DNA of 64,000 bases, taken from Salegentibacter sp. 24 (GTDB taxonomy: Bacteria > Bacteroidota > Bacteroidia > Flavobacteriales > Flavobacteriaceae). The DNA lies in NCBI RefSeq assembly GCF_004362395.1, contig NZ_SNWE01000011.1:1-64000 (forward strand). The letters are read 5' to 3'. The stretch's first letter is position 1; the number at the start of each line of letters is the position of its first letter. The position numbers and the translations under genes were made by a program. The notes below the pieces were generated by a model, which had not been told where the DNA came from, searched no databases, and saw nothing but the letters and a program-made list of their open reading frames with translations. Positions 1-12,643 of the stretch are shown one piece after another.

Positions 1-82
1 AAGGTACCAAATCATCATAACTGGGAGGTAAAAGACTTAACTGCGACTGGTTATAGGTCTTAAATACAACTTTAGCTTTCAT
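1..82 (-). CDS. IS1182-like transposase, N-terminal fragment cut by window edge
   Basis: Reading the minus strand from the ATG at 82 gives 27 codons without a stop up to the window edge. The peptide starts MKAKVVFKTYNQSQ and continues with LSLLPPSYDDLVP. A short basic start, then YNQ.Q..LLPPS..DL.P, is the usual N-terminus of IS1182-family DDE transposases in Bacteroidota. Only the start is visible, so neither integrity nor the catalytic residues can be judged. The element's terminal inverted repeat would lie just right of 82, before the hairpin at 124-145. The call rests on motif recognition of a short peptide. Confidence 0.65.
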   Translation of the reverse strand, partial: MKAKVVFKTYNQSQLSLLPPSYDDLVP

Positions 83-123
83 TACATGAAAATAACAAAA
101 ACCTCAAAAAAATCCAACAAAAA

Positions 124-145
124 AGGCTGCCTTTTCAGACAGCCT
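124..145 (-). terminator. Rho-independent terminator of lipoprotein A
   Basis: Inverted repeat AGGCTG (124-129) / CAGCCT (140-145). On the minus strand it is followed by a T-run (the A-run at 119-124). It lies 25 bases past the stop of the lipoprotein gene ending at 170 and closes the array on that side. Confidence 0.75.
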
Positions 146-169
146 CCTTTTAATAAAGGGTGATATGGT

Positions 170-1852
170 TTATTCAATTACCATTACATCAGCCCCACTT
201 ACTATTGTTGGATCATTTGATATTTTCATATCATCAATAGCAAAATCATTCCCACTTCTTTCGGTCTGGTCATTTTCCAAACGGAAATCTAGAACTCCAT
301 TGCTATCGGCTTTAAGTCTTAAACCAACTTTTAACCATCCTTCAGATTCGTCTGCTGAAATAATTTGTGGATTACTACTTCCATCTACAATTATATCACC
401 AGACTCACCGCCAGTACGTACTACTAATCTTACGTCATTTTCACCTCCTGGGGTTACTGCTAAAATGTTTCTTAAATTGAATGAAACAAAATAGTCTGCT
501 CCAGGACATACATCTTCCATCGTGGTAGCAAGATAAGCAGCCTGATCGGAATCGGGATCACCGTTAAATGCTAACATATTCCCATGGAATGTTTCATTAA
601 TCCAGTTGTCATGTACCAAGTTAGGATTAGTTGTCGGTGCGTAAAGTCCTTCTGGCCATAAAGAATTACTCACTATCGGAGCGGCTAAAGTATAATCAGT
701 TCCATCCCAGGCTTTGAAGGCCATTGGATACGACCCATCAAAGTGGTTCGCGTATTTTACTGGTGCAGAAAACAAACATGGTTCTGAATCATCTTGATTA
801 GAACAAGCTCCTTCTCTGAAATGGTAGTAATTGCTGGTTGAATCACCATTGCCATCTACTGAGTAATTTAAATCCCAAACATCGTCCTCATCGAATTCAC
901 CAACTCTTATTAATTTCTCACGGTTACCTTGATCATCTAACAACCAAACTTCTCCATAATAAACATCTATTTCATTTGGATCATCAGGTAATTGTACACA
1001 AACTGGTTCTGCATATTCATAAGTACCATATTCATCGCTACCTTCCAATAATTCATTTCCAGCTACAAATAATGGTGAACCTTTTGGATCCAGTGAATTT
1101 CCGCTATAATTCCATACCTCGAATTCAAATATTGCAGGTGTATGACGTCCGTCTTCATCGCATTCGTTTCCAAATAAACATAGATAAAGGATGTCTACCT
1201 CTTCAAAATCAAAGAATAGGTATCCGTATTTATTCACATAATGTTCATCATAACAAAGCACTTGTACATCTACATACTTCTTTTGTCCGTTATTTACGGA
1301 GAAAGCATCACTTGGTAAAGCATCATTTACAAAATTTTGATACTCAGCAGGCCCGTATTCTCCGCTTTCACTAGGAGCTAAATATAAAAGGGTATCGTCG
1401 GTTAGTTCACTGTCATCACCTCCAGATGCATAAACACCAAAGTAATTGATTCTATAAACCCCTTGTGGTAATTCTAATTCATCATTTGCTCCTTCTCCAG
1501 TTAACCAGGATCCATCATCTTGTGGAATTACAGGTACATCAAAATGGGATTTCCCATCTTTTTCATAAACTACATTCCCCGTAGCGCCTTCCAATAATTG
1601 AACACGTACAAAAACTTCTGCTTCACCTTCCTCTGGACATTCGGGTAAACCATTGTTGCCGGTACCAGGTGTGACTGATTGCTTAGTTAACATTTCTCGA
1701 TTAAAATCCTCAAGTAGAGCTGTGAAACCAATTGCCCCCATCTCATCGCCAGCCGGTCCGTCAGGACTGTCTGGGTTGTCTTCCTTACTACAGGAAGTCA
1801 TTACCATCGCTAATAGAGCGACATAAGCCAAATAAACTTTAAAGTTTTTCAT
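170..1852 (-). CDS. Surface lipoprotein A of the paralogous array, with carbohydrate-binding-like tail
   Basis: 560 residues. Residues 1-21 form a lipoprotein signal peptide ending in the lipobox MTSC; Cys21 is followed by SKED, which fits the K-[DE]2 surface-export signal described for Bacteroidota lipoproteins. Residues about 30-345 are the constant module shared with the four paralogs here: KQS near the N-terminus, NFVNDALP, KKYVDVQVLCYDE, YGYLFFDF, CDEDGRH and a closing YYHFREGAC. The tail of about 200 residues is unique to this copy. It looks like a jelly-roll carbohydrate-binding domain (NETFHGNMLAF, CPGADYFVSFNL, FAIDDMKI), a pattern common in secreted Bacteroidota proteins. Strongly acidic. 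Last gene of the array. Function unknown; anchoring and surface location are inferred. Confidence 0.85.
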   Translation of the reverse strand: MKNFKVYLAYVALLAMVMTSCSKEDNPDSPDGPAGDEMGAIGFTALLEDFNREMLTKQSVTPGTGNNGLPECPEEGEAEVFVRVQLLEGATGNVVYEKDGKSHFDVPVIPQDDGSWLTGEGANDELELPQGVYRINYFGVYASGGDDSELTDDTLLYLAPSESGEYGPAEYQNFVNDALPSDAFSVNNGQKKYVDVQVLCYDEHYVNKYGYLFFDFEEVDILYLCLFGNECDEDGRHTPAIFEFEVWNYSGNSLDPKGSPLFVAGNELLEGSDEYGTYEYAEPVCVQLPDDPNEIDVYYGEVWLLDDQGNREKLIRVGEFDEDDVWDLNYSVDGNGDSTSNYYHFREGACSNQDDSEPCLFSAPVKYANHFDGSYPMAFKAWDGTDYTLAAPIVSNSLWPEGLYAPTTNPNLVHDNWINETFHGNMLAFNGDPDSDQAAYLATTMEDVCPGADYFVSFNLRNILAVTPGGENDVRLVVRTGGESGDIIVDGSSNPQIISADESEGWLKVGLRLKADSNGVLDFRLENDQTERSGNDFAIDDMKISNDPTIVSGADVMVIE

Positions 1853-1893
1853 AATAAAAAATTTAGATTAATTAATTAATAAAAGGTTGATTT

Positions 1894-1930
1894 ATAAGCC
1901 TGTAAAAGAACCACCCAATGACAGGCTTAT
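1894..1930 (-). terminator. Hairpin between lipoproteins B and A
   Basis: Perfect 10-bp inverted repeat ATAAGCCTGT (1894-1903) / ACAGGCTTAT (1921-1930), 17 bases after the stop of lipoprotein B. The downstream T-tract is weak (TTATAAATC), so it may only partly terminate or may mark an RNA-processing or stabilising site. Confidence 0.5.
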
Positions 1931-1946
1931 GGGTTTAATATGTTTA

Positions 1947-3395
1947 TTATTCAGGTGTGCATATATTTTCGTCATTTACATTTTTTGCTGAGATCACTTC
2001 ATAAAGTCCTTCGCCAAAGATTTGGCCCGGAAATAAGGGTACTGAACAACTGGTATGGAGATTATGAGTTGTTTCTGCAATTGTAAACTCCAGTTCCGTC
2101 CACACTGAAGGGATAGGATGTCCACCGTTTACGGCCTCCCCTGGCAAAAGTATCTCCTGACCTGGACTTACTTCGCCATTAAATATCTCGTAGGGAGCTT
2201 CCGGTCCATTATGCACTACAATCAAGCTTGCTGCAGAAGTCCCTAAATATTTTACCGTTAACTGTTTTATTTTACCGCCCTGGTCATTGTCACAAACCAC
2301 ACATGGGGGATCCTGAGGTTCTTCTTCACAAATTCCTTCGTTGGAGGTTACATCATTTAATAATTGGTACTGATCCGTAGTCTCACAACAAGCTTCTCTG
2401 AAGTGATAATAATAATGTTCTTGTTCTTGCTTGTATATTTCTGACAAAGCGGTAGCATTAAAACTTCCCTCCCTGATCAAAGTTTCGATATCATTTTCAA
2501 CCAGCCATATTTTTGCATAAAATTCTTCCCCTTCTTCCAATTCGGGAAGTGGAAAACAAAGAGCATCGGCATAATAATGAGTACCGTTAACATCACTAAA
2601 AGATTTTCTTTCATTCTGTGCTACTACTAACAAATCCCCCTGGTCTGATTCTTTCCATACTTTGATTTTAAATTGAGCAGGCAGATGCTTTTGATTTTCA
2701 TCGCAAACATTCCCATAGGTGCAGAGATAAATTAGATTGGTGGAATTAAAATCGAAGAATAAATATCCGAAAGCGAAAGCATAATGCTCCTCATAACAAA
2801 GGACCTCAATGGGCTGATAATATTTTACCCCTGGACGAATTTTAACCTCAATTGGAAGCGGGTTATCCACAAAATTATGATACTGAATACTTTGACTATA
2901 GTCCAAATCCCCCTCGGGAACCCGGGGTGCCATATAAATGATATCTTCCTGGTTATTTCCGGGTGCAGTAGCGACAGCAAAGTATTCTATCCTGTATTGT
3001 CCCTCTTCAAGTTCAAGGTCTGCAGACTCCTGGGTGAACCAGGCATCTAGATTTCCGTCACTATCCAGATCGGTTCCGTTTGGATTAACTTCTATTTCAA
3101 TTTTATTGAGGTTAGAATCCCGATACCAGATCCAGGTCTCTCCCTCCTTTACTTTAATGGCTACTCTAACGTATAACGGATTTTCCTCTGAACATTCAGG
3201 AATGTCATAAGGGTCCAAAATACTTTGCTTCGTTAGTTGATTTCGGTTAGCCAAATCACTAAGAACACTTCCAAATGATAATTTACCTACATCGGTACTG
3301 GCTTCGGTTTCTTTACCTACTTCTTCTTTTGAACAGGAAATAATTAAAAATAAGGCTAGAAAAACAATAAAACTACTGCGTACAAAATTTTTCAT
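1947..3395 (-). CDS. Surface lipoprotein B of the paralogous array, with DUF7467-like tail
   Basis: 482 residues. The lipoprotein signal peptide ends at IISC, with Cys21 followed by SKEE. The constant module runs to about residue 340: LTKQSI, IPECSEE, YHNFVDNPLP, YYQPIEVLCYEEHY, FGYLFFDF, CDENQKH and YYYHFREACC. The tail of about 130 residues differs from the other copies: a CVVCDNDQGGKI opening, LTVKYLG, VWTELEFT, HTSCSVPLFPGQIFG. This resembles a small beta domain (DUF7467-like) found repeatedly in secreted bacterial proteins. The first codons (MKNF) match lipoproteins A and E, as expected for duplicated copies. A 773-base intergenic stretch lies upstream, so it probably has its own promoter. 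Function unknown. Confidence 0.85.
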   Translation of the reverse strand: MKNFVRSSFIVFLALFLIISCSKEEVGKETEASTDVGKLSFGSVLSDLANRNQLTKQSILDPYDIPECSEENPLYVRVAIKVKEGETWIWYRDSNLNKIEIEVNPNGTDLDSDGNLDAWFTQESADLELEEGQYRIEYFAVATAPGNNQEDIIYMAPRVPEGDLDYSQSIQYHNFVDNPLPIEVKIRPGVKYYQPIEVLCYEEHYAFAFGYLFFDFNSTNLIYLCTYGNVCDENQKHLPAQFKIKVWKESDQGDLLVVAQNERKSFSDVNGTHYYADALCFPLPELEEGEEFYAKIWLVENDIETLIREGSFNATALSEIYKQEQEHYYYHFREACCETTDQYQLLNDVTSNEGICEEEPQDPPCVVCDNDQGGKIKQLTVKYLGTSAASLIVVHNGPEAPYEIFNGEVSPGQEILLPGEAVNGGHPIPSVWTELEFTIAETTHNLHTSCSVPLFPGQIFGEGLYEVISAKNVNDENICTPE

Positions 3396-3587
3396 CTTAA
3401 TATAATATTAAGTTAAGCTTCTGAATTGCATCAGAAATATTCTAGTTAGAAAAATGTAGGGGAAAGATCGTAGGGAATTTTCAAGCTGGTAGGAGTTGCT
3501 CTCAAATCATAATACTAATTTAGAGTGAGGAAGGGGATGCTCTTATAGGGGTATTCCCGTAAGATTTACCAATTTGATGAAAAATCA

Positions 3588-3608
3588 TTATTAGTCCGAT
3601 TCCTACAA
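3588..3608 (-). promoter_or_regulatory. Repeated upstream motif, copy 1
   Basis: The plus strand reads TTATTAGTCCGATTCCTACA plus one A. It matches 5296-5316 at 19 of 21 positions. It lies about 195 bases upstream of lipoprotein B, in the same orientation relative to the gene as copy 2 has to the metalloprotease. A shared operator is an inference from recurrence alone. Confidence 0.3.
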
Positions 3609-4118
3609 ATTAATGTATAAAATTAGCATAACTAAAGACACTTTCCTTTTATTCTATCAGAGGCCTTAGGAAATATAGATAAAGCGCAAGCATAGTCGAT
3701 TAACTATTCAGATTCTAAATTAAATAAAAATGCCTGGAATGGAATTTTTATTCTATATCCAGGTTACTTATATGAAATTAGAAATGTTTTAAACTAGGAT
3801 TAGATACCTATTTTTAAAACAGTCAATGTGCAGCCAAACTTCCGATATTGGCGATATGATCTTTAATTTTATTGTCGCGTTGGTACCAAAAGAATTCACA
3901 ATCCAAATTGGATTATGGAAAACTCGAAAACATCCCTCATAGGCATATAAGTAATACTATGGTCTGACAAATTAAGAGATGAAGCTTTAATAGAGAAAAG
4001 TTAAAGTTGAGAAAATCAAAAAAATAATCCCTGATACTATGTATTCGTTTTTCAGTTTTCTTGTCACCTGTGAATAATTTCTACACACTGTAGAAAACAG
4101 TATTCTCATTTTCCACAT

Positions 4119-4146
4119 AAAAAAACCCGGACAGAATGCCCGGGTT
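4119..4146 (-). terminator. Rho-independent terminator of the metalloprotease gene
   Basis: Stem AACCCGG (4124-4130) / CCGGGTT (4140-4146), followed on the minus strand by a run of T (A-run 4119-4125). It starts 23 bases after the stop codon. Confidence 0.8.
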
Positions 4147-4168
4147 GAATCGTGAATGAAGTCGATAA

Positions 4169-5197
4169 TTATACAAAAAACCAATAACCATATTTGATCT
4201 CCACTTCTTTCCAGCCCCATTTCGAATTATAATACCATCTATCATAATTTCTAAGAACCGTCAGTCCATTCAAAGTGTAGTATTCTCCGTTAATATAGGT
4301 AGGTTTGGCCCCCTCTTCAGGATACATCGCTTTAACCCCTGCGATATCCCCTGATGAAAGTGCCGAACGTTGAACCTGGTAAGTACTTCCATTAGTTCTT
4401 GTTATTGTAGGTTCACCATTTGCAGAAAAGGAATAAGGACCATACATCATAATTGATCCAAAATCTAAACTGCTGGTAAATTCATTACCATCAAAGCCAC
4501 TGGTTTCATAGGTATGAAAATTATGCTCGGTGCCACTTCGGATATTATCGAAATTAATAGTGATATAATTACTACGATCTACCCTACTCTGCTCATGCCA
4601 CAGGCCTACTGCGTGACCTATTTCGTGAATGGTATTTCCAGTACTACAATATTCTGATAATGTGATGTTCTGTCTTCCTCCAATCATCCCTACATAGGAG
4701 GAACAACCAGACCCAGGGGTAAAATAAATATAATTGGACTCTCCTGACCTTTCAACAAATTTCAGGGGAGTATTATTCTCCCAGTGTTGAATCGCGTCAT
4801 ACACCCTGTCTTTATCAGCTAGCGTGGAGTTAATAGCAAAATAAACGGTATTATCCGGCCACATTCCTGAAGTACGGCCGGTACTTTTGTTCTGGGGAAT
4901 AGCCGCTTTATTTTTATAAATAATAGATTGAGGGGACTTGCTGGTTTTATTTACAGGAATCATTATATCTCCCTGATACACATAATCTCCATTATGTTCT
5001 TCTACAGGCATTTTTTGACCAGCGTAATAAACTTGTGAAACGGGGCCCAGCTTGTCTGGAAATGCCATTTCTGATTTTTGATTTAAAATTTCTTCTGGGT
5101 TGAGTTGCGTTTCTGCATTTTCATTCTCTGAAATTGGATCTTTACTACATGCCAGAATCGCTAGAACAGGTAGTAACAAAAATTTACTTTTTCGCAT
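4169..5197 (-). CDS. Astacin-type (M12A) zinc metalloprotease lipoprotein
   Basis: 342 residues. Signal peptide with lipobox LAILAC and Cys17 followed by SKDP, so it is probably membrane- or surface-anchored. Residues 20-110 look like a propeptide. The catalytic domain starts near MWPDNTVYFAIN (about 112). The astacin zinc motif is complete: HEIGHAVGLWHE at 191-202 (ligands His191, His195, His201; Glu192 catalytic) followed by QSRVDR. A Met-turn SIMMYGPYSF follows. This fits flavastacin-like endopeptidases of Flavobacteriaceae. A short aromatic C-terminal tail (NGEYYTLNG, RWYYNSKWGWKE) is unusual and may bind a surface. It lies between lipoproteins C and B on the same strand but with its own terminator and a long leader. 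It could process the neighbouring lipoproteins, which is untested. Confidence 0.9.
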   Translation of the reverse strand: MRKSKFLLLPVLAILACSKDPISENENAETQLNPEEILNQKSEMAFPDKLGPVSQVYYAGQKMPVEEHNGDYVYQGDIMIPVNKTSKSPQSIIYKNKAAIPQNKSTGRTSGMWPDNTVYFAINSTLADKDRVYDAIQHWENNTPLKFVERSGESNYIYFTPGSGCSSYVGMIGGRQNITLSEYCSTGNTIHEIGHAVGLWHEQSRVDRSNYITINFDNIRSGTEHNFHTYETSGFDGNEFTSSLDFGSIMMYGPYSFSANGEPTITRTNGSTYQVQRSALSSGDIAGVKAMYPEEGAKPTYINGEYYTLNGLTVLRNYDRWYYNSKWGWKEVEIKYGYWFFV

Positions 5198-5295
5198 AAG
5201 TAGGGTTTTACTTTTTAAGTTAAATTATTATAATTTTTAATTCTGGAGTTTGCAAAGGTCATTCCAAAAAAAATGGAATTTAATATCCTAAAATT

Positions 5296-5316
5296 TTAAT
5301 AGTCAGATTCCTACAA
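5296..5316 (-). promoter_or_regulatory. Repeated upstream motif, copy 2
   Basis: The plus strand reads TTAATAGTCAGATTCCTACA plus one A, with two differences from 3588-3608. It lies about 100 bases upstream of the metalloprotease start. Possible common regulatory site for the protease and lipoprotein B; inferred from recurrence only. Confidence 0.3.
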
Positions 5317-5512
5317 GGATGAAAGAAAATTAATTTTAAAACGAATTGGGGGATTTTAAAATTAAAACAATCAAAAAATATTTAAGTTCTTAAAGCCTGT
5401 ATTTTCAGCTGTCTTCGAAAATTTTTGGATTAAAACAATATGCAAAATTTCAGAAACTAGGGACCAACATAATATCTTATTCTTAATTTGTTAAATGTTT
5501 TAACAAAAAAAA

Positions 5513-5537
5513 GCTGTGCGAAATAAATTCGCACAGC
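5513..5537 (-). terminator. Strong Rho-independent terminator after lipoprotein C
   Basis: Perfect 10-bp stem GCTGTGCGAA (5513-5522) / TTCGCACAGC (5528-5537) with a 5-base loop. On the minus strand it is followed by eight T (A-run 5505-5512). It ends the C-D-E part of the array. Confidence 0.88.
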
Positions 5538-5570
5538 CTACTTTGTAACCTTCAAGATTGAGGATTACAA

Positions 5571-5615
5571 AAACCCAGTGAATTAGTCACCCCCCGGTTA
5601 TAAAATTACTGGGTT
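5571..5615 (-). terminator. Second hairpin just after lipoprotein C
   Basis: AAACCCAGTGAATT (5571-5584) pairs with AAATTACTGGGTTT (5602-5615) with one bulge, and a T-run follows on the minus strand. It begins 10 bases after the stop codon, so two hairpins stand in series here. Confidence 0.5.
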
Positions 5616-5624
5616 TGCCTTTAA

Positions 5625-7253
5625 TTAAGATCCTGTGGACCTTGAACAAACGTTTGCTGAAAAACGTACAAATACACTTCCTGAAAAATCTGTTCCTATA
5701 GCCTCGTCAATATCAACAGCATCGATATTATCAGGAGCTGTCAGACCATATTCATAAACACAGGTGGTCTCCCCACCAAGTTCATCTGCAATTTCCAACC
5801 TATAATCTCTCAGATAAAATTCGGTGTTTGAATTAATCAACAAGACATCCCCGTTAACATCAAAAGAGATCAGGCCAAGAGCTACAGTAGGATTATCACT
5901 TATAAAAATCGGTATAGGTTGCGAGTTTGATATTTCTACCCATTCATTAAGGTCATTTACATCAGTACCGGCAATATAGACTCTTTCACAATCCCCAGAT
6001 GATGGTATAGCAGGACATTCAGCCACCTGTTCTCCACAAGTAGGATCTGGATTTCTTACACAACCTTCATTTTCATTGTCATTAAGGATGTCATCTCCAT
6101 CGATATCAGTATCACAACCATCTGGAGTCCCATCTTCGTCCAGATCTAAACTATCATCAAATCCTGGGCATTGATCTACTCCATTTAATACACCATCATT
6201 ATCACAGTCATCAGCAGGGTTTTGAGGATCACATTCTCCATTTCCATTTCCCGGATCGCCACTGGCACAATTAAAGAATAAATGGAAATAATCTAGAGTT
6301 CCATCTTCACGAACTTTATCGGTAATATCTTCCCAGGACAGGTTGCGTATAATTTCCTTATCGGCTGGGTTTGGATAATTTCCTTCCCAATTGGATAAAG
6401 TTGCAATTATTTGAATGTAATTTGTTGTGCTGGTCTCATTATGCATTGGTGCAGGTATGGCAAAGCAGAACGGGTCCGCATAATAAATATCTGCATCATC
6501 ATCAAAACCGTAATGATCATCTGGAAGAGCCATAGTCTCATATAACACCTTATCCTCACTTCCTCCGGTATATACAACTCTTATATCATAATTGGCAGTA
6601 AAATGCCTACCATCTTCATCACAGTAATTTGCAAAAATACATACCTCGTGCAATACTTCCGGAACAAGGTCAAAAAATTGATATCCATATAAATTTACCT
6701 CACGATCGTCAAAACATAGTACTTCTATATCCACATATTTTTTAGAACCCGCTCTTATGGTAAAATTGTAAGGAAGCCCCTGATTAACAAAATTTCCATA
6801 TTCACTTGTTGTTGCAGGTGCTGCCCAAATTAAGGTTGATCCTTCATCCTCTGGGTCTCCGTCATACACTAAAAAGGTAGTAATGGAAACAGTAGCACTT
6901 TGGTCATCATCGTTAGCAACTGGAATTTTTAAACCTTCATCATAATCGGTGAAAAAGTTTCCGTCTTCGCTTAAAATTGGAACATTTATATTAATAACAC
7001 CTTCCAGGTCAGTGCCTGAGTTATGTGTTAATTCTATATGAGCATAGGCCGGTGCTTCAGATGAACAGATGGCCATGCTTTGCTTAACAGCTGCCCGGTT
7101 TACAAATTCATTAAGGCTCGCTCCCAGACTTAACTCAGCAAAATCCTCTGAATCTTCATTGTTAATTACAGCACCTTCTTCTTCCTTAGTACATGAAGTC
7201 ATAAAGAGTGAAAGAACGGCAATTAAAGCCAGATATTTTTTTAAAAGTCTCAT
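5625..7253 (-). CDS. Surface lipoprotein C of the paralogous array, with thrombospondin type 3 repeats
   Basis: 542 residues from the ATG at 7253. An ATG 13 codons upstream (7292) is open, but the start at 7253 puts a standard lipoprotein signal (MRLLKKYLAL...FMTSC, then TKEEE) at the N-terminus, as in the paralogs. The constant module includes VKQSM, ICSSEAPAYAHIEL, NFVNQGLP, AGSKKYVDIEVLCFDDREV, LYGYQFFDL, CDEDGRH, YYADPFCFAIP and YFHLFFNC. Next come calcium-binding thrombospondin type 3 repeats (DDCDNDGVLNGVDQCPG, DLDEDGTPDGCDTDIDGD), then about 150 residues of unassigned beta-rich tail (FYLRDYRLEIADELGG). The repeats probably act as a Ca2+-stiffened linker. Function unknown. Confidence 0.85.
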   Translation of the reverse strand: MRLLKKYLALIAVLSLFMTSCTKEEEGAVINNEDSEDFAELSLGASLNEFVNRAAVKQSMAICSSEAPAYAHIELTHNSGTDLEGVININVPILSEDGNFFTDYDEGLKIPVANDDDQSATVSITTFLVYDGDPEDEGSTLIWAAPATTSEYGNFVNQGLPYNFTIRAGSKKYVDIEVLCFDDREVNLYGYQFFDLVPEVLHEVCIFANYCDEDGRHFTANYDIRVVYTGGSEDKVLYETMALPDDHYGFDDDADIYYADPFCFAIPAPMHNETSTTNYIQIIATLSNWEGNYPNPADKEIIRNLSWEDITDKVREDGTLDYFHLFFNCASGDPGNGNGECDPQNPADDCDNDGVLNGVDQCPGFDDSLDLDEDGTPDGCDTDIDGDDILNDNENEGCVRNPDPTCGEQVAECPAIPSSGDCERVYIAGTDVNDLNEWVEISNSQPIPIFISDNPTVALGLISFDVNGDVLLINSNTEFYLRDYRLEIADELGGETTCVYEYGLTAPDNIDAVDIDEAIGTDFSGSVFVRFSANVCSRSTGS

Positions 7254-7292
7254 AATTAAAGTTTTTTGGATTAAATATTTAGAATGGTTCAT
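7254..7292 (-). promoter_or_regulatory. 5' leader of lipoprotein C, similar to that of lipoprotein E
   Basis: The plus strand contains AAAGTTTTTTGGATT then AAATATTTAGAATGGTTCAT. The region just upstream of lipoprotein E (10424-10463) has AAAGTTTTGGTT then AAATATTTAAGAATGGTTAA. The similarity sits in non-coding DNA directly before the start codon, so the duplication probably included the leader, or the leader has a conserved role in translation. Confidence 0.45.
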
Positions 7293-7296
7293 AAGA

Positions 7297-7328
7297 AACT
7301 ATCAGGAGCATAAGGCTCCTGATAGTTT
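7297..7328 (-). terminator. Hairpin between lipoproteins D and C
   Basis: AAACTATCAGGA/TCCTGATAGTTT is a perfect 12-bp stem enclosing GCATAAGGC, with further GC pairing inside. It lies directly after the stop of lipoprotein D and 44 bases before the start of C. The minus-strand T-tract is short (GTTTCTTATG), so partial termination or transcript processing is as likely as full termination. Confidence 0.6.
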
Positions 7329-7336
7329 TTATCATT

Positions 7337-9010
7337 TTAGTAACACGCTACTGCATGAATAATAATGTAGAAATCCTCACTATAGGTTCTTTCCCAAGTG
7401 TAAGTCAAGGTGCCTTGGCTAACCTCATCATTCAGGTTATATTGACCAGGTGCAAAAACAGCATTACCTGATGGCGCAGCTTCACTTAAATTAATATGAA
7501 GGTCATCTAAACTCTTACCAGGGTCAAGTGTTATTACTAGAGAAATATCATCTCCGGCTACAGTGATTTCAGCAGTACCAATATGTTCGCCTTTAGAGGT
7601 GTCGTTTTGACCTGCTCCTGCCCAAATATCAAAAGTTTCACTAGAACCTTCTACGCTAGTCTGATAATGTTCAGCCCAGCCCCAGCGATTTGCATTTGCT
7701 AAGGTATTAAGTGGTGTATCACCTTCCATATAGGCGGTTTCACAAGTGTCACCTCCGGGTTCAGGACATCCATCATTGGATTCTGGACCAGCCTGGTAAG
7801 GACATTCATCAATACAGTCATTTAATCCATCACTATCAGCATCACCAGTACAATCTTGAATTGGACATCCTCCATCTAAAGGATCTCCTGCATCTTCTGG
7901 ACAGGTATCACATCCATCTGGAACCCCGTCCTCATCCATATCATCGGAATCATCATAACCAGGACATATATCCTCTTCATTAGGTATGCAATCTCCATCA
8001 GTATCTTCAGGGGTTACTGGACAGTCTTGTGTTGGATCATCCCCACAATTGAAAAAGATATGTTCATAATCTATGGTTTGATTATCACCAAAATAGGCCT
8101 GAATATCGTTCCAGCTCAAGTAAATAATCTTAGGCTGTTCTGCTCCGGGAGTTCCGTAATTGTCATCCCAATCTGCTAAAGTAACGGTAACGCGTAAGTA
8201 ATCATCAGTATCAGCCTCATCATACATAGGAGCGGGTATAGCCAAACATAATGGATCGGCATACCAATCTCCTGTATTATCATCCGCTGTATTTCCAGTA
8301 ACAGGCGACTTATCTGAGTATAGATTTATCACCTGGTCACCCCTTAGGTAATCAATGTCTAAAGTATAATTGGCGGTATAGTGTCTTCCCGAATCTAGAC
8401 AATAGTTGGCAAATACACAGAACTCATACAGCTCAATAGGAATAAGATCAAAGAACTGATAACCGTAAAGATTTACATCCCGATCATCAAAACATAAGAC
8501 TTCTACATCAAGGTATTTTTTCGAACCAGCCCTTAAGTCAAAATCAATTGGTAAGGCATCATTTACAAAGTTCTTATACTCTCCTTCATCAGTAGGAGCT
8601 ACCCAAATAGGTGAAATACCTTCTCCCGGTTCTTCTGCATATACCATAAATTTAGTCAGGCTTACTGCAGTGGTTGTTTGGTCAGCGGGAATTGGAATTT
8701 CTAAATCATCATCGTAATCAGTGAAATAAGTAGTCCCATCAAAAAGAATGGGTACTACGACATCCTCAGTTCCCATTTCGTGGGTCAATACTACCCATGC
8801 ATACATAGGGGTACCATCAGAACATTCTGGGATTTCCTCTGAAATGGCCTGCCTGTTATCATTGACAAGGTCATTTAGAAGAGCACCTATAGAAATGCTC
8901 GCTACCTCCTCATTAACAGAGGGTTCGCTGGGCTCATCTTTACTACAGGATGTAAATAGCATCCCCGCAGCCACGAATGTGGCTAACATTAATTTTAATT
9001 TTTTCATCAT
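7337..9010 (-). CDS. Surface lipoprotein D of the paralogous array, with thrombospondin type 3 repeats
   Basis: 557 residues. Signal peptide MMKKLKLMLATFVAAGMLF with lipobox FTSC, Cys22 followed by SKDE (surface-export-like). The constant module is nearly the same as in lipoprotein E between about residues 60 and 200 (VVLTHEMG, DGTTYFTDYD, PADQTTTAVSLT, FVNDALP, LRAGSKKYLDVEVLCFDD, LYGYQFFDLIP) and ends at YEHIFFNC. At least three thrombospondin type 3-like segments follow (DTDGDCIPNEEDICPG, DMDEDGVPDGCDTCPED, DADSDGLNDCIDECP), then a unique tail of about 125 residues. It is 57 bases behind lipoprotein E with a terminator-like hairpin between them, so its expression may depend on readthrough. 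Confidence 0.85.
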   Translation of the reverse strand: MMKKLKLMLATFVAAGMLFTSCSKDEPSEPSVNEEVASISIGALLNDLVNDNRQAISEEIPECSDGTPMYAWVVLTHEMGTEDVVVPILFDGTTYFTDYDDDLEIPIPADQTTTAVSLTKFMVYAEEPGEGISPIWVAPTDEGEYKNFVNDALPIDFDLRAGSKKYLDVEVLCFDDRDVNLYGYQFFDLIPIELYEFCVFANYCLDSGRHYTANYTLDIDYLRGDQVINLYSDKSPVTGNTADDNTGDWYADPLCLAIPAPMYDEADTDDYLRVTVTLADWDDNYGTPGAEQPKIIYLSWNDIQAYFGDNQTIDYEHIFFNCGDDPTQDCPVTPEDTDGDCIPNEEDICPGYDDSDDMDEDGVPDGCDTCPEDAGDPLDGGCPIQDCTGDADSDGLNDCIDECPYQAGPESNDGCPEPGGDTCETAYMEGDTPLNTLANANRWGWAEHYQTSVEGSSETFDIWAGAGQNDTSKGEHIGTAEITVAGDDISLVITLDPGKSLDDLHINLSEAAPSGNAVFAPGQYNLNDEVSQGTLTYTWERTYSEDFYIIIHAVACY

Positions 9011-9033
9011 TTCTATGTTTTAAAGTGAATTAA

Positions 9034-9061
9034 AAAGGTGCCCCATTCTGGGACACCCTTT
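9034..9061 (-). terminator. Terminator-like hairpin between lipoproteins E and D
   Basis: AAAGGTGCCCCA (9034-9045) pairs with TGGGACACCCTT (9049-9060), allowing G-U pairs, with a tight loop. On the minus strand it is followed by TTTTT. It starts 7 bases after the stop of lipoprotein E. With only 57 bases between the genes, a separate promoter for D is hard to place. Confidence 0.75.
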
Positions 9062-9067
9062 AAATTT

Positions 9068-10423
9068 CTAATACTGGTCAAACTCACCACAGGCAAGTGG
9101 TGTCATATCTGATTCATGAAGTACAGCAGTCCTATTGGCTAGGTTAGCTGCGCTTACCTGAGCAGCAGTCAGAGTAAAGGTTCTTGTGTAGAAAAAGTTT
9201 CCTTCCCCATCTGCTTCTTCCCAAACACCTCCAGCATAATCAAGGGGCCAAAAAACTGGTCCAAAATCTGCACAAGTAGCATTTTGATGAATGTGCTGTG
9301 GAATATCTCCAGGAGTAAGTTCGGTAGCTGCAGTTGTAGCAGTTAACTTATTACCTTCCAACTTCAGGTATGCAAATCCAACGGCGTTAGAATCCCCTAA
9401 GTTCTTTAAACAGGCTTTGTAACGTTTAGCCTCAGTTTTAGGATCATCAAATGGTGGAGGGTTATCATCTCCACATCCGTAATTAAAGTGATAGTACTCC
9501 ATTGTTTCGGCCTCATCATCATTGTAGAACAATTTAATTTCATCATCAGTGATTGGTCCGGAAAGAATTACCTCACCTGCATCGTCTGAGGTATACTCGT
9601 CGGTATTATTTAAGGTGATTTCAAAGAAATAAGTATCTGTACCTTCAGTATCTGGTAACCAGAAACATAATGGATCAGCATAGTAGTCGCCGGTACCCTC
9701 ATCTTCTAAAACATCATTTGATACCTCGGTATAAAGTGGTTCTCCGGATGCTTCGGAACCTTTCCATACAGTTACTGTATAGCCTGCAACATAATGTCTA
9801 CCATCTTCAGAAGGACAGAAGTTTCCGAACAAACAGAATTTCATAAGTGGTACGGGAACAAGATCAAAGAATTGGTAACCATAAAGATTTACCTCACGGT
9901 CATCAAAACACAATACTTCCACATCTACATACTTTTTAGATCCAGCACGTAAATCAAAATTTACTGGTAAGGCATCGTTAACAAAGTTCTCATATTCACT
10001 GCCTTCCTTTGGAGCCACCCAAATAGGAATACTCATATCATCCGGCTCCTCAGCATAAACCCAGAAATCGGTTAGGCTTACTGCGGTGGTTGTTTGATCC
10101 GCTGGAATTGGAATGGCTAGTTCCTCATCATAATCGGTAAAATAAGTAGTCCCATCAAATTTGATTGGCACCACCACATCTTCTTCTCCTAATTCATGGG
10201 TAAGTACTACTCTCGCGTACATTGGCGCATCATCAGAACACACAGGAATACTTTGCTTTAAAGCCGTCTGGTTTCTGATAAAATCATTTAAAACCGCTCC
10301 TAACGAAATGGTTGCCATTTCGTCACCCACCTGGGGATCAGTGTCGGTTTCATCCTTGCTACAGGAGGCAAAAAGCATCGCTACTATTGCGATACCTGTA
10401 AAGTAATTTTTAAAGTTTTTCAT
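9068..10423 (-). CDS. Surface lipoprotein E of the paralogous array, with CHRD/SodC-like tail
   Basis: 451 residues and the first gene of the C-D-E run. Signal peptide MKNFKNYFTGIAIVAMLF with lipobox FASC, Cys21 followed by SKDE. Constant module: LKQSIPVCSDDAPMYARV, PADQTTTAVSLT, NFVNDALP, AGSKKYVDVEVLCFDD, LYGYQFFDLVP, SEDGRHY, YYADPLCFWLP and YYHFNYGC. The tail (about 330-451) differs: KACLKNLGDSNAVGFAYLKL, PGDIPQHIHQNATC, RTAVLHESDMTPLACGEF. The HIH element and the closing LACGE recall CHRD and Cu/Zn superoxide dismutase-like folds, but no metal site is demonstrated. The downstream hairpin may keep E more abundant than D and C. Confidence 0.85.
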   Translation of the reverse strand: MKNFKNYFTGIAIVAMLFASCSKDETDTDPQVGDEMATISLGAVLNDFIRNQTALKQSIPVCSDDAPMYARVVLTHELGEEDVVVPIKFDGTTYFTDYDEELAIPIPADQTTTAVSLTDFWVYAEEPDDMSIPIWVAPKEGSEYENFVNDALPVNFDLRAGSKKYVDVEVLCFDDREVNLYGYQFFDLVPVPLMKFCLFGNFCPSEDGRHYVAGYTVTVWKGSEASGEPLYTEVSNDVLEDEGTGDYYADPLCFWLPDTEGTDTYFFEITLNNTDEYTSDDAGEVILSGPITDDEIKLFYNDDEAETMEYYHFNYGCGDDNPPPFDDPKTEAKRYKACLKNLGDSNAVGFAYLKLEGNKLTATTAATELTPGDIPQHIHQNATCADFGPVFWPLDYAGGVWEEADGEGNFFYTRTFTLTAAQVSAANLANRTAVLHESDMTPLACGEFDQY

Positions 10424-10463
10424 AACGTAAAAGTTTTGGTTAAAAAATATTTAAGAATGGTTA
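10424..10463 (-). promoter_or_regulatory. 5' leader of lipoprotein E, similar to that of lipoprotein C
   Basis: Non-coding match to 7254-7292 (see there), immediately upstream of the ATG. It is AT-rich and unstructured, consistent with the Shine-Dalgarno-poor translation starts of Bacteroidota. Confidence 0.4.
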
Positions 10464-10525
10464 ATAAAATATATACACAGTCTTTAAACAAAGAACAATT
10501 GTATTCAGTTTTAATAAGCTGGGGG

Positions 10526-10560
10526 GCTAAAAAAAGTAGAGAAGTGGGGTGACTACTTTT
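10526..10560 (-). terminator. Rho-independent terminator of the LuxR-type regulator gene
   Basis: Stem AAAAGTAG (10532-10539) / CTACTTTT (10553-10560), followed on the minus strand by a T-run (A-run 10529-10535). It lies about 90 bases after the regulator's stop and separates it from the lipoprotein array. Confidence 0.7.
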
Positions 10561-10647
10561 CGATTGAAATTCTAGTATAAATGTAGGTTAATTCTTTCCT
10601 AGAAAGCTATGGGGGTTTTCTCCCATATTCAACCTGAAATTGTTTTC

Positions 10648-11664
10648 TTATACTTTTTGATAATCTATAAGGTCATGACTTATGGCATAGATGATACTTT
10701 CCAGAATAGTATCAGAGTTGGTACGCTTAATAATATTGGAGCGGTGTTTTTCTATTGTCTTGGGAGAAATAAATAAAGCTTCAGAGATATCTTTAGTCTT
10801 ATATCCTTTTATTAGTAATTCAATAATCTCCTTCTCTCTGTTGGTGAATTTAAAATCTGTAAGATGGCTATTTTGTTTAAAACACTCCTCTACATCTTCT
10901 GAAGAAGTTCCAATTCCATTAGTAATTACATCTTTTTCTTCCATAAAGTCTATAAACATGACAAACTGGTGTCCAAAATTTCTACTTAGCTTAGAAAATG
11001 TAATGCGTGCATTCCTCACTTTATCGTCTCTAAGCATTAAGGAAGTTTTCGTAGCGGCTTTTGTATGTTTCCCCCTGGCAAAATTCCGTAAGCTATCTTT
11101 AACCTTTTGTACATTCTCACATTTTATAAAATCAGTCAATTTTAGACCATCACTTTTTGTTAGCCTAAAACTTTGTTTAAAAGCATCATTCATAGCTACA
11201 ATTTCATTCTGATCTAACAATAAAACCGGTTTTGACATAAGATTGAACATCCCCATAAAAGCATCTTTCCAAAAATTGGAAAGAGAACGATTAGAATAAA
11301 CCATTTTTATGATTTTTCCACATAGGGATTCCATACTGGGCGAGTATATAAATTCATCTACGACTTTTCTGAATCTGCTTTCGGCTTCAGTCTGAAAACG
11401 GGCCTCGGCGTATACCACAAGCCAGGCCTTGGTAAGAAAATGATTAGATTTAAAATTGGCGATATTCTTAAAATTCTTACCTGATCTAAAAGAAGAATAA
11501 TCTAATAGAATTACATCGGGCAATAGGTTAAGCGCAATGTTAAAACCCGTGTGCAAAGAATTCGAATGGGTTACTTCAAATTGCATACTCAGGCCCTCCT
11601 GGATACAATCTACCATACTTTGTTTGCTGGTAATAAGCAATAATTGCTTTTTCTCCGTTATCAT
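10648..11664 (-). CDS. LuxR-family transcriptional regulator with receiver-like and PAS-like domains
   Basis: 338 residues. Residues 1-120 resemble a degenerate response-regulator receiver (KQLLLITSK at the start, DVILLDYSS around 54-62), but the acidic pocket near the N-terminus is not clear, so phosphorylation is doubtful. Residues about 150-260 look PAS-like (SKPVLLLDQNEIVAMNDAF). Residues about 275-335 are a GerE/LuxR helix-turn-helix (FTNREKEIIELLIKGYKTKD, ISPKTIEKHRSNI). The only regulator in the first 12 kb, on the same strand and directly upstream of the lipoprotein array, with its own terminator. Control of the array is inferred from position only. Confidence 0.85.
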   Translation of the reverse strand: MITEKKQLLLITSKQSMVDCIQEGLSMQFEVTHSNSLHTGFNIALNLLPDVILLDYSSFRSGKNFKNIANFKSNHFLTKAWLVVYAEARFQTEAESRFRKVVDEFIYSPSMESLCGKIIKMVYSNRSLSNFWKDAFMGMFNLMSKPVLLLDQNEIVAMNDAFKQSFRLTKSDGLKLTDFIKCENVQKVKDSLRNFARGKHTKAATKTSLMLRDDKVRNARITFSKLSRNFGHQFVMFIDFMEEKDVITNGIGTSSEDVEECFKQNSHLTDFKFTNREKEIIELLIKGYKTKDISEALFISPKTIEKHRSNIIKRTNSDTILESIIYAISHDLIDYQKV

Positions 11665-11798
11665 ACTACAACAATTTTGCGGCTGTTTAGCAGTTAGTTA
11701 AAAACGTGGAGTAAGTCCACTCGCCATTGAGGGGATAGATCAAAAACATTGGGCGTAAGGACCGGTGCTTTAATTATATCCCTTAGTAAGCATTATAT

Positions 11799-11827
11799 AA
11801 TGGGGGCAAAACTGAATGGGGGCAAAA
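11799..11827. repeat. 13-bp direct repeat upstream of the LuxR-type regulator
   Basis: AATGGGGGCAAAA occurs at 11799-11811 and again at 11815-11827, a period of 16 bases. It lies about 135-163 bases upstream of the regulator's start and could be a tandem protein-binding site, for example for autoregulation. Confidence 0.45.
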
Positions 11828-12618
11828 AACAAACTATAATTAGGTTTTCATTCTCCGGGGGGTGGAAACTTGTAAGCATGAAGATTTGGTATTTCAAATA
11901 TAGGGGATTAACCTTAATTCTTACAAAAAAATATAGTAATATTATACTGACAATCAATCAAATACAACTAGGATGAAAGTGATTATAAAGCCGACGATGG
12001 CTATATTTTTCAGATGGTAAAAAATTCATCAAGGGTACATTTATAATTGTGAATTAATTGAACTTCTAGTGGAATCTAAAATGCAATTAATAATAATGCA
12101 TTTGATTTATAGTATAAAACATAACGCATTGCAGATAAGGCATGGCCTCATCGGAAATTCCTACTATCGATCTTACATTAATATGGTTTAAAATCATATC
12201 AGGAGAAATTATAAAAAAGCCATAAGATAACTTTCATCTTAAGCAAAGGCTAATCCTCACAGGAACCAGAGCGATAAAATTTCAATCTTTGCCTTTCTGA
12301 TAATGCCTTTTATCTGAGTCTTTTGGACCTTAGACGGAAAAAATATCTAATATATTAAGGATGTTGCTAAACAGGGATTGCTATCAAAGGCCCAAACTTA
12401 GGAAAATCAATTCTCAAAATTGCCCGTGTATAAACTTATGTAAATAGAGAGGTATTAATTAAAGTCTTGTTACCAGGGACTCCAATCCTGTTAATAAATA
12501 CTGATTAGAAAAATAACTAATTTGCTATGACTTTTGGATCCAGCTAATAGCTTAAAATTTTAAACCATAATTAACACTAGTAGAAACATCCTTTCTTTTT
12601 AGTTAGCAACACTTTAAG

Positions 12619-12626
12619 TACCTTTG
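12619..12626 (+). promoter_or_regulatory. Promoter -7 element of uvrA
   Basis: TACCTTTG matches the Bacteroidota -7 consensus TAnnTTTG. T-rich sequence (12592-12599) stands where the -33 TTTG is expected, but without an exact match. Transcription would begin around 12632, giving a leader of only about a dozen bases before the ATG at 12644. Confidence 0.5.
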
Positions 12627-12643
12627 CCCCCTTGATAAAAAAT

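What the first reader, a model, noticed from the sequence alone, without database searches (positions are those of the whole stretch)
170..10423. Array of five surface lipoproteins with one constant module and swapped C-terminal tails
All five have a lipoprotein start (C-[ST]-K-[DE]) and a shared segment of about 300 residues with the same landmarks: KQS, NFVN.xLP, KKY.D..VLC[FY]D, [YF]GY.FFD, C.E/D..GRH or similar, and a final [YH]HxxxxxC. After that last Cys the proteins stop resembling each other: a CBM-like tail, a DUF7467-like tail, two tails led by thrombospondin type 3 repeats that then diverge, and a CHRD/SodC-like tail. A fixed display part plus exchangeable ends, in tandem, suggests a surface-diversification or multi-component adhesion system. 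Seen: paralogy and tail differences. Inferred: surface display and function.
Basis: partly seen in the sequence, partly recalled or inferred. Interest (0 to 1): 0.8.

Follow-up and report, generated by a model that had tools for sequence, protein, structure and literature searches.

The report
Surface lipoproteins with recombining variable heads
A salt-loving marine bacterium carries a row of five probable cell-surface proteins that share one fixed anchoring part but end in different heads, and comparison with sister species indicates that heads are replaced by recombination while the anchor usually stays, much like changing the bit on a screwdriver.

Summary
Five lipoproteins (170-10423, minus strand) share a module of about 300 residues; tails resemble each other no more than shuffled sequence in 9 of 10 pairs. 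The module matches no Pfam or NCBIfam model above cut-off. It occurs in 14 of 15 sampled genomes of the genus and 11 of 397 of the family, own genome included. The array is conserved in Salegentibacter: LuxR-type gene, three lipoproteins, astacin, up to two more. Elsewhere the module carries other tails or none. N-termini match the known surface-export signal (66 of 85 against 5 of 55 other candidate lipoproteins), so outward display is likely but unproven. Tail replacement between species is supported: identity drops at or past the module's end and recovers near the stop codon, and the uvrA grouping is rejected for A, C tail and part of E. Domain type mostly stays with array position, so this is mainly allele exchange; the A module moved too. 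The E tail has a Cu,Zn-SOD fold with too few His for both metal sites. Best reading: surface display of exchangeable binding heads. Adhesion is inferred.

The parts
9467..10423 (-). Lipoprotein E, constant module (signal peptide, lipobox CSKDE, N-terminal strand, KQ linker, two beta domains)
   Evidence: module profile; AF2 mean pLDDT 82.1 full length, 80.9 module alone
9068..9466 (-). E tail: Cu,Zn-SOD fold, with HIH but only 3 His in all
   Evidence: Foldseek best E 5.9e-6, TM by target 0.55-0.76 among the 50 listed; His count
8039..9007 (-). Lipoprotein D, constant module
7337..8038 (-). D tail: Asp-rich TSP3-like linker plus a domain (WGW...AGAGQN) that recurs in other Flavobacteriaceae, also in very long frames
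   Evidence: TSP3 24.1 bits, cut-off 25; 32 of 149 genomes
6261..7253 (-). Lipoprotein C, constant module
5625..6260 (-). C tail: TSP3-like linker plus unnamed domain; position with exchanged tails between species
4169..5197 (-). Astacin (M12A) metalloprotease lipoprotein, conserved in the related arrays
   Evidence: Pfam PF01400 E 1.5e-45; synteny
2379..3395 (-). Lipoprotein B, constant module
1947..2378 (-). B tail: DUF7467-like; divergent in some sister species
   Evidence: PF24269 26.2 bits, cut-off 27
797..1852 (-). Lipoprotein A, constant module
170..796 (-). A tail: unnamed domain that recurs in other Flavobacteriaceae in open frames of up to 5347 aa
   Evidence: 33 of 149 genomes; sub-threshold MAM and CBM_11 hits in relatives only
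10648..11664 (-). LuxR-type regulator gene (GerE HTH, weak PAS) directly upstream, conserved next to the array
   Evidence: PF00196 E 5.7e-14; synteny
10531..10561 (-). Hairpin with conserved loop TCACCCCA and changing stem, upstream of E
5296..5316 (-). 21-bp element upstream of the astacin gene, nearly the same as one upstream of B
3588..3608 (-). 21-bp element upstream of B

Best explanation
A gene array of surface lipoproteins that works as a display rack. The fixed module exports and anchors: its N-terminus carries the Bacteroidota surface-export signal, and two disulfide-stabilised beta domains form a stalk. The C-terminal heads (SOD-fold domain, TSP3-linked domains, DUF7467-like, an unnamed domain on A) bind ligands or surfaces. 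A LuxR-type regulator gene and a lipid-anchored astacin protease travel with the array and may control it and trim or shed the proteins. Homologous recombination between strains and species, with the conserved module on one side and the conserved stretch after the stop codon on the other, replaces heads while usually leaving the anchor unchanged. Shown here by computation: architecture, synteny, export-signal enrichment, mosaic recombination. Inferred: actual surface location, disulfides, adhesive or ligand-binding function, regulation by the LuxR protein, role of the astacin, homology arms as the mechanism, and selection (phages, grazers or substrates) as the driver.
For: Module with no family match above cut-off, in 14 of 15 genus genomes, 11 of 397 family genomes (two of these only weak partial matches) and 5 of 395 phylum genomes. 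Of 92 module proteins in the window and 35 loci, 90 have a defined module end: 85 tails fall in 15 sequence clusters and 5 proteins have 23 residues or fewer after the module. Outside the array the tails include TTHB210-like and DUF7133 (over cut-off) and weak sorbosone dehydrogenase and vanadium chloroperoxidase matches (under cut-off). Export signal C-X-[KR]-(D/E)2 in 66 of 85 family members against 5 of 55 other candidate lipoproteins of the same loci, the signal being defined in PMC5080379 (passages). Synteny. Recombination: S. agarivorans (L012) vs S. salinarum (L013) DNA identity is 87% over the B module (82-95% in its last 480 bases), 40-60% over most of the tail, 98% just after the stop; S. 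salarius (L010) vs S. lacus (L011) share a 90-100% block over the last two thirds of E, with 57-90% before and 50-58% after it. AU tests reject the uvrA grouping for the E 3' part (p 2.8e-6), the A module, A tail and C tail (p 6.6e-5 or less). Chimera: S. echinorum A has a module 78% like the window's and 51% like S. salarius, but a tail 43% and 67% respectively. Tail identity is 25 points or more below module identity in 32 of 114 orthologue pairs; the two halves of the module differ that much in 0 of 114. D and A tail domains occur in 32 and 33 of 149 family genomes; 29 of those 32 and 32 of those 33 had no module match.
Against: No proteomics or microscopy: surface location rests on a motif, and the 55 control proteins come from a crude pattern. 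The D tail is often better conserved than the D module (12 of 28 pairs) and the A module itself was exchanged, so the module is not always the constant part. Domain type mostly stays with position, so part of the tail divergence could be fast evolution in place. B tail rejection is weak (p 0.018, one of nine tests, uncorrected), the B module is not rejected (0.26), the D tail is not rejected (0.074), and the C and D modules keep the tested grouping; uvrA alone stands for the species tree. The orthologue pairs are not independent: all seven E cases involve S. tibetensis L014. Single transcription is doubtful: terminator-like sites are more frequent than in shuffles (17 vs 8.0, sd 3.2) and lie after A, after C, after the astacin gene and between D and C. 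No tail has a demonstrated ligand; the SOD fold and the enzyme-like tails fit catalysis or metal binding as well. pTM is low (0.43, 0.46), so domain placing is unreliable.
Confidence: 0.6

Rival explanations
1. Type V pilus-like system: the module is a divergent fimbrillin. The N-terminal strand fills its own groove, a protease cuts at the conserved basic residue in the linker, and subunits then polymerise by strand exchange, carrying heads on filaments.
For: Lipoprotein start, conserved short strand, then a low-confidence linker with [KR]Q in 76 of 88 modules; weak fold hits to a putative Bacteroides adhesin 3pay (E 1e-4), Mfa2 5nfi (E 1.4e-3) and 4k4k (E 8.5e-3); far-below-cut-off Mfa1-family match at the N-terminus of four of the five; a protease in the array. 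Protease-mediated strand exchange is described in PMC8313007 (passages).
Against: No Pfam fimbrillin match for any of 44 modules at E up to 1; PF06321 and PF13149 not found in the own genome; the fold superpositions are poor (rmsd 18-26, TM about 0.2); the [KR]Q pattern was chosen after seeing the consensus and has no chance baseline; the C-terminus that would donate a strand is fused to a large tail; astacins are not known (recalled) to cut after Lys/Arg; [quoted passage not shown]
Confidence: 0.15
2. Surface enzymes and metal handling: the module is a generic lipoprotein stalk that displays enzymes and metal-binding domains rather than adhesins.
For: SOD fold on E; weak vanadium-chloroperoxidase-like and sorbosone-dehydrogenase-like tails elsewhere; astacin in the array.
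Against: The window's E tail has only 3 His, too few for the Cu,Zn site; A, C and D tails have no enzyme match. The enzyme-like tails are outside the array.
Confidence: 0.15
3. Tails differ only because they evolve fast in place; there is no exchange.
For: Most positions keep the same domain family across species; B tail and D tail tests are weak or not significant.
Against: Recovery of identity to 90% or more soon after the tail, a near-identical block between non-sister species, a module-tail chimera and AU rejections.
Confidence: 0.07

Closest known systems
Bacteroidota surface-exposed lipoproteins with a lipoprotein export signal (PMC5080379, passages)
   Same: Lipobox followed by C-X-K-(D/E)2, the optimal signal measured in Capnocytophaga canimorsus.
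   Different: Well-known cases (recalled) are Sus-type binding proteins and enzymes; here one export-and-stalk module is reused with many heads.
Type V fimbriae (FimA/Mfa1; PMC8313007, passages)
   Same: Lipoprotein precursors in gene clusters, N-terminal strand and a basic residue in the following linker, strong allelic diversity; weak fold resemblance.
   Different: No sequence match above cut-off, large C-terminal heads, an astacin instead of a gingipain, no evidence of polymerisation.
Polymorphic toxins (constant N-terminus, exchangeable C-terminal tip; recalled)
   Same: Constant N-terminal part with C-terminal ends replaced by recombination.
   Different: No toxin domain recognised and no immunity gene after the tails; gaps E-D, D-C and B-A are 57, 44 and 94 bp.
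LRR protein BT_0210 (PDB 4ecn; its N-domain is DUF4458 by recall)
   Same: Best fold hit of the module (E 1.8e-6); sub-threshold DUF4458 matches in 7 of 44 modules.
   Different: All below cut-off, poor superposition; heads and second domain differ.

Membership tests
Surface-exported lipoproteins (LES) | Lipobox Cys then X-K-(D/E)2 | tested here: met
   C-X-[KR]-(D/E)2 in 66 of 85 members, all five of the window; 5 of 55 other candidate lipoproteins
Surface-exported lipoproteins (LES) | Exposed on the outer face of the outer membrane | not testable with these tools
   needs shaving or labelling
Type V fimbrillins | Match to fimbrillin models | tested here: not met
   Pfam scan of 44 modules; NCBIfam Mfa1 family 13-17 bits against a cut-off of 130, N-terminus only, four of five
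Type V fimbrillins | Two-domain fimbrillin fold | tested here: inconclusive
   Foldseek hits to fimbrillin-like adhesins with poor superposition
Type V fimbrillins | Removable N-terminal strand and basic cleavage site | tested here: inconclusive
   strand plus [KR]Q linker in 76 of 88; cleavage not shown
Type V fimbrillins | Polymerisation into filaments | not testable with these tools
   none
Polymorphic toxin systems | Exchangeable C-terminal tip | tested here: met
Polymorphic toxin systems | Toxin domain and following immunity gene | tested here: not met
   no toxin match in Pfam or NCBIfam for the five; gaps E-D, D-C, B-A too short for a gene
Invertible (phase-variable) surface loci | Inverted repeats around promoter or cassettes | tested here: not met
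   at 16 nt or more only two pairs in 1-12600, one with arms 8 kb apart, one a palindrome
Cu,Zn superoxide dismutase (E tail) | SOD beta-barrel fold | tested here: met
Cu,Zn superoxide dismutase (E tail) | Full set of Cu and Zn ligands (six His and one Asp, recalled) | tested here: not met
   window E tail holds 3 His in all; HIH is in 16 of 17 tails of this cluster

The most novel reading that the evidence does not exclude
A second, flavobacterial kind of protease-matured pilus: each module is a divergent type V-like pilin whose N-terminal strand is cut off at the conserved [KR]Q linker so that subunits chain up, presenting a mixed set of recombining heads on one filament, with the array's astacin involved in maturation or release.
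Probability: 0.12. Interest if true: 0.82.

Novelty: new variant of a known kind. Interest (0 to 1): 0.55.

Why it matters
It gives an unnamed protein family with a clear division of labour, an export-and-stalk module and swappable heads, and natural chimeras that show where the parts can be joined. If surface display is confirmed, it offers a way to study how marine Flavobacteriaceae vary their outer surface, and a natural set of fusion points for displaying proteins on Bacteroidota.

Tried and rejected
Fimbrillin and DUF4458 membership by family search: 0 of 118 genomes for PF14660 and for PF06321, 1 of 118 for PF13149. The sample may hold few genomes rich in these families, and the PF14660 search rang nowhere, not even in the controls, so only the absence of PF06321 and PF13149 from the own genome is used. 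Solved-structure sequence searches of the module (two profiles), the A tail, the D tail and one distant relative gave nothing meaningful. Rfam found nothing at gathering thresholds in 1-13000. Promoter-like sites are no more frequent than in shuffles (51 vs 45.0, sd 6.4), terminator-like sites are (17 vs 8.0, sd 3.2); this speaks against one long operon, and I write 'array'. Invertible switch and silent cassettes: no support. Toxin reading: no toxin domain or immunity gene. The fold search of the whole E protein listed only SODs and the SOD-like EA4 protein in its 50 rows, so the module was folded alone. Folds of the upstream hairpin in L018 and L015 first failed because my stretches cut off the 5' arm; redone.

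Weak points of the counts. The control comes from a crude lipobox pattern, and several of its 55 rows are probably orthologues of the array's astacin (CSKDP start), so they are not independent. Five family members without a detected lipobox were dropped there (90 to 85), and two rows (L029, L035) had a wrong Cys chosen and count as misses. In one search at least four of the twelve modules without [KR]Q are failures of linker delimitation or truncated rows; no chance baseline was computed. Tail clusters are single-linkage; cluster 0 is held together by the TSP3-like linker and holds several different end domains. Two short Gillisia module proteins without a module end (L040, L041) were left out. 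Match counts per genome are lower bounds because at most five candidates were scored. In one search only three of seven distant relatives were read in the right frame (L043, L045, L046); the other four were not followed up. The AU tests (nine in all) are not corrected for number.
Full report
WHAT IS THERE. Five lipoprotein genes run on the minus strand from 10423 down to 170, in the order E, D, C, astacin protease, B, A. The window begins at the first base of contig C11, so the array ends against a contig edge. The shared module matches nothing in Pfam or NCBIfam above cut-off; a scan of 44 modules from the window and related loci gave only sub-threshold hits, DUF4458 in 7 of 44 (best E 0.046) being the most frequent. 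Across 88 modules the lipid Cys and six more cysteines are conserved: E residues 21, 62, 172, 197, 203, 253 and 317, in 87, 88, 88, 86, 88, 85 and 78 of 88. Three disulfides are possible; that is inferred.

SPREAD. The own genome holds these five. A scan of genome contigs gave 35 loci, nearly all labelled Salegentibacter, Salinimicrobium or Gillisia, plus three MAG contigs with other labels. Sampled genomes with a match, own genome included: 14 of 15 in the genus (one with 15 matches), 11 of 397 in the family (two of them weak and partial), 5 of 395 in the phylum, of which three are from other families and match only part of the module. One of those three carries a Laminin_G_3 head, so stalk-plus-other-head may be a wider theme.

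SYNTENY. In eight Salegentibacter loci (L008-L015) the order is LuxR-type gene, three lipoproteins, astacin gene; six of these have two more lipoproteins after it, and seven show uvrA upstream. In S. holothuriorum (L009) and S. tibetensis (L014) no B or A follows; another gene comes directly after the astacin gene. In S. flavus and near kin (L018, L020, L022) the relative of the E tail is on the second gene, not the first. Two Salinimicrobium loci (L025, L027) have regulator, four lipoproteins and astacin; Gillisia loci L040 and L041 have lipoproteins on both sides of the astacin. Other loci hold single copies without this setting. Terminator-like hairpins lie between or after several of the window's genes, so one transcript is not assumed.

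TAILS. Of 92 module proteins, 90 have a defined module end: 85 tails fall in 15 clusters and 5 proteins have 23 residues or fewer after the module. Outside the array the module carries TTHB210-like (39.4 bits, cut-off 26.6), DUF7133 (40.2, cut-off 27) with sub-threshold sorbosone dehydrogenase, sub-threshold vanadium chloroperoxidase N-domain, and TSP3 (40.7, cut-off 25) heads. A cluster with a DSSGSMNS motif looks like a von Willebrand A domain by recall only; Pfam gave nothing for its member. The E tail has the Cu,Zn-SOD fold but only three His; HIH is in 16 of 17 tails of its cluster. The D tail domain occurs in 32 of 149 and the A tail domain in 33 of 149 sampled family genomes; 29 and 32 of these had no module match, where they were all searched. 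Some matches lie in very long stop-free frames (up to 3823 aa for D, 5347 aa for A). The heads are therefore domains also used elsewhere.

SURFACE. The published optimal export signal is C-X-K-(D/E)2 (PMC5080379, passages). C-X-[KR]-(D/E)2 is present in all five and in 66 of 85 family members, against 5 of 55 other candidate lipoproteins of the same loci. The astacin has CSKDP, which lacks the second acidic residue.

STRUCTURE. AlphaFold2 on E (72 rows) and on the module alone (81 rows) gives a mainly beta protein, mean pLDDT 82.1 and 80.9, pTM 0.43 and 0.46: a short low-confidence N-terminal strand, a low-confidence linker, then what I divide into two beta domains from the strand order. The linker carries [KR]Q in 76 of 88 modules. 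Best solved-structure hits are an LRR protein (4ecn, E 1.8e-6), an unrelated-looking TIE protein (6fwv, 4.5e-5), a putative Bacteroides adhesin (3pay, 1e-4) and Mfa2 (5nfi, 1.4e-3), all with poor superpositions. This hints at fimbrillin-like stalks but does not prove it.

RECOMBINATION. Tail identity is 25 points or more below module identity in 32 of 114 orthologue pairs (E 7 of 28, all with S. tibetensis L014; D 0 of 28; C 15 of 28; B 9 of 15; A 1 of 15); the two halves of the module never differ that much, 0 of 114. Between S. agarivorans and S. salinarum, sisters by uvrA, DNA identity is 87% over the B module and still 90% just past its end, falls to 40-60% about 60 bases further on, returns to 98% after the stop codon and 92-95% through the start of A, and falls again inside A. 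Between S. lacus and S. agarivorans the C gene breaks about 270 bases past the module, after the TSP3-like part, and recovers about 100 bases after the stop. S. salarius and S. lacus share a 90-100% block from 360 bases into E to just past its stop, with 57-90% before and 50-58% after, and the uvrA grouping is rejected there (p 2.8e-6). AU tests also reject the uvrA grouping for the A module (p 5e-77), A tail (p 4e-62) and C tail (p 6.6e-5), weakly for the B tail (p 0.018, uncorrected), not for the B module (0.26) or D tail (0.074); the C and D modules already showed the tested grouping, though D with support of only 28/15. S. echinorum A is a chimera: module 78% like the window's and tail 67% like that of S. 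salarius, against 51% and 43% the other way round. S. tibetensis holds two E copies with modules 79% and tails 47% identical. Against a strict 'constant module' view: D tails are 10 points or more better conserved than D modules in 12 of 28 pairs, and the A module itself was exchanged.

READING. The most economical account is an export-and-stalk module displaying exchangeable heads, with recombination between species probably using the module and the stretch after the stop as homology arms. Each position tends to keep one type of head, so exchange is mostly among alleles. The driver and the ligands are unknown. The type V pilus-like reading is kept as the boldest alternative.

LITERATURE. Searches for Salegentibacter with lipoprotein or adhesin, DUF7467, DUF4458, and surface lipoproteins with modularity, recombination, domain shuffling or thrombospondin repeats showed no title that describes this family (listings only, and only 8 of 121 papers were listed). 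Passages of PMC5080379 and PMC8313007 were read.

Noticed in passing
window 10531-10561 (-), upstream of E: A hairpin with the loop TCACCCCA and a stem whose sequence changes between species: it folds in 12 of 14 upstream regions (window and 11 Salegentibacter loci), and the two Salinimicrobium regions lack the loop sequence. The exact 15-base core occurs once in the own genome. Possibly an RNA leader or a regulator site; covariation was not formally counted.
   Followed up: partly
window 3588-3608 and 5296-5316 (-): Two nearly identical 21-bp elements upstream of B and of the astacin gene (0 of 100 shuffles gave two matches). The astacin copy is kept in nine Salegentibacter arrays, the window's included, with at most one mismatch in its 15-base core; B copies in other species have 2 to 5 mismatches. 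Candidate operator or promoter element.
   Followed up: partly
window 1-169: The contig breaks just after A in a repeat with 99% and 93% copies elsewhere in the genome; the reading frame starts like an insertion-sequence transposase (recalled). A mobile element may sit directly after the array.
   Followed up: partly
L016 (NZ_JAHENT010000027.1, 3697 bp): A contig filed under an archaeal Methanohalobium bin encodes three Salegentibacter-like array proteins; most likely a misbinned contig.
   Followed up: no
window 4169-5197: The array's astacin scores 222 bits against the NCBIfam LegP model (cut-off 300), so a LegP-like protease architecture occurs as a lipoprotein in marine Flavobacteriaceae.
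   Followed up: no
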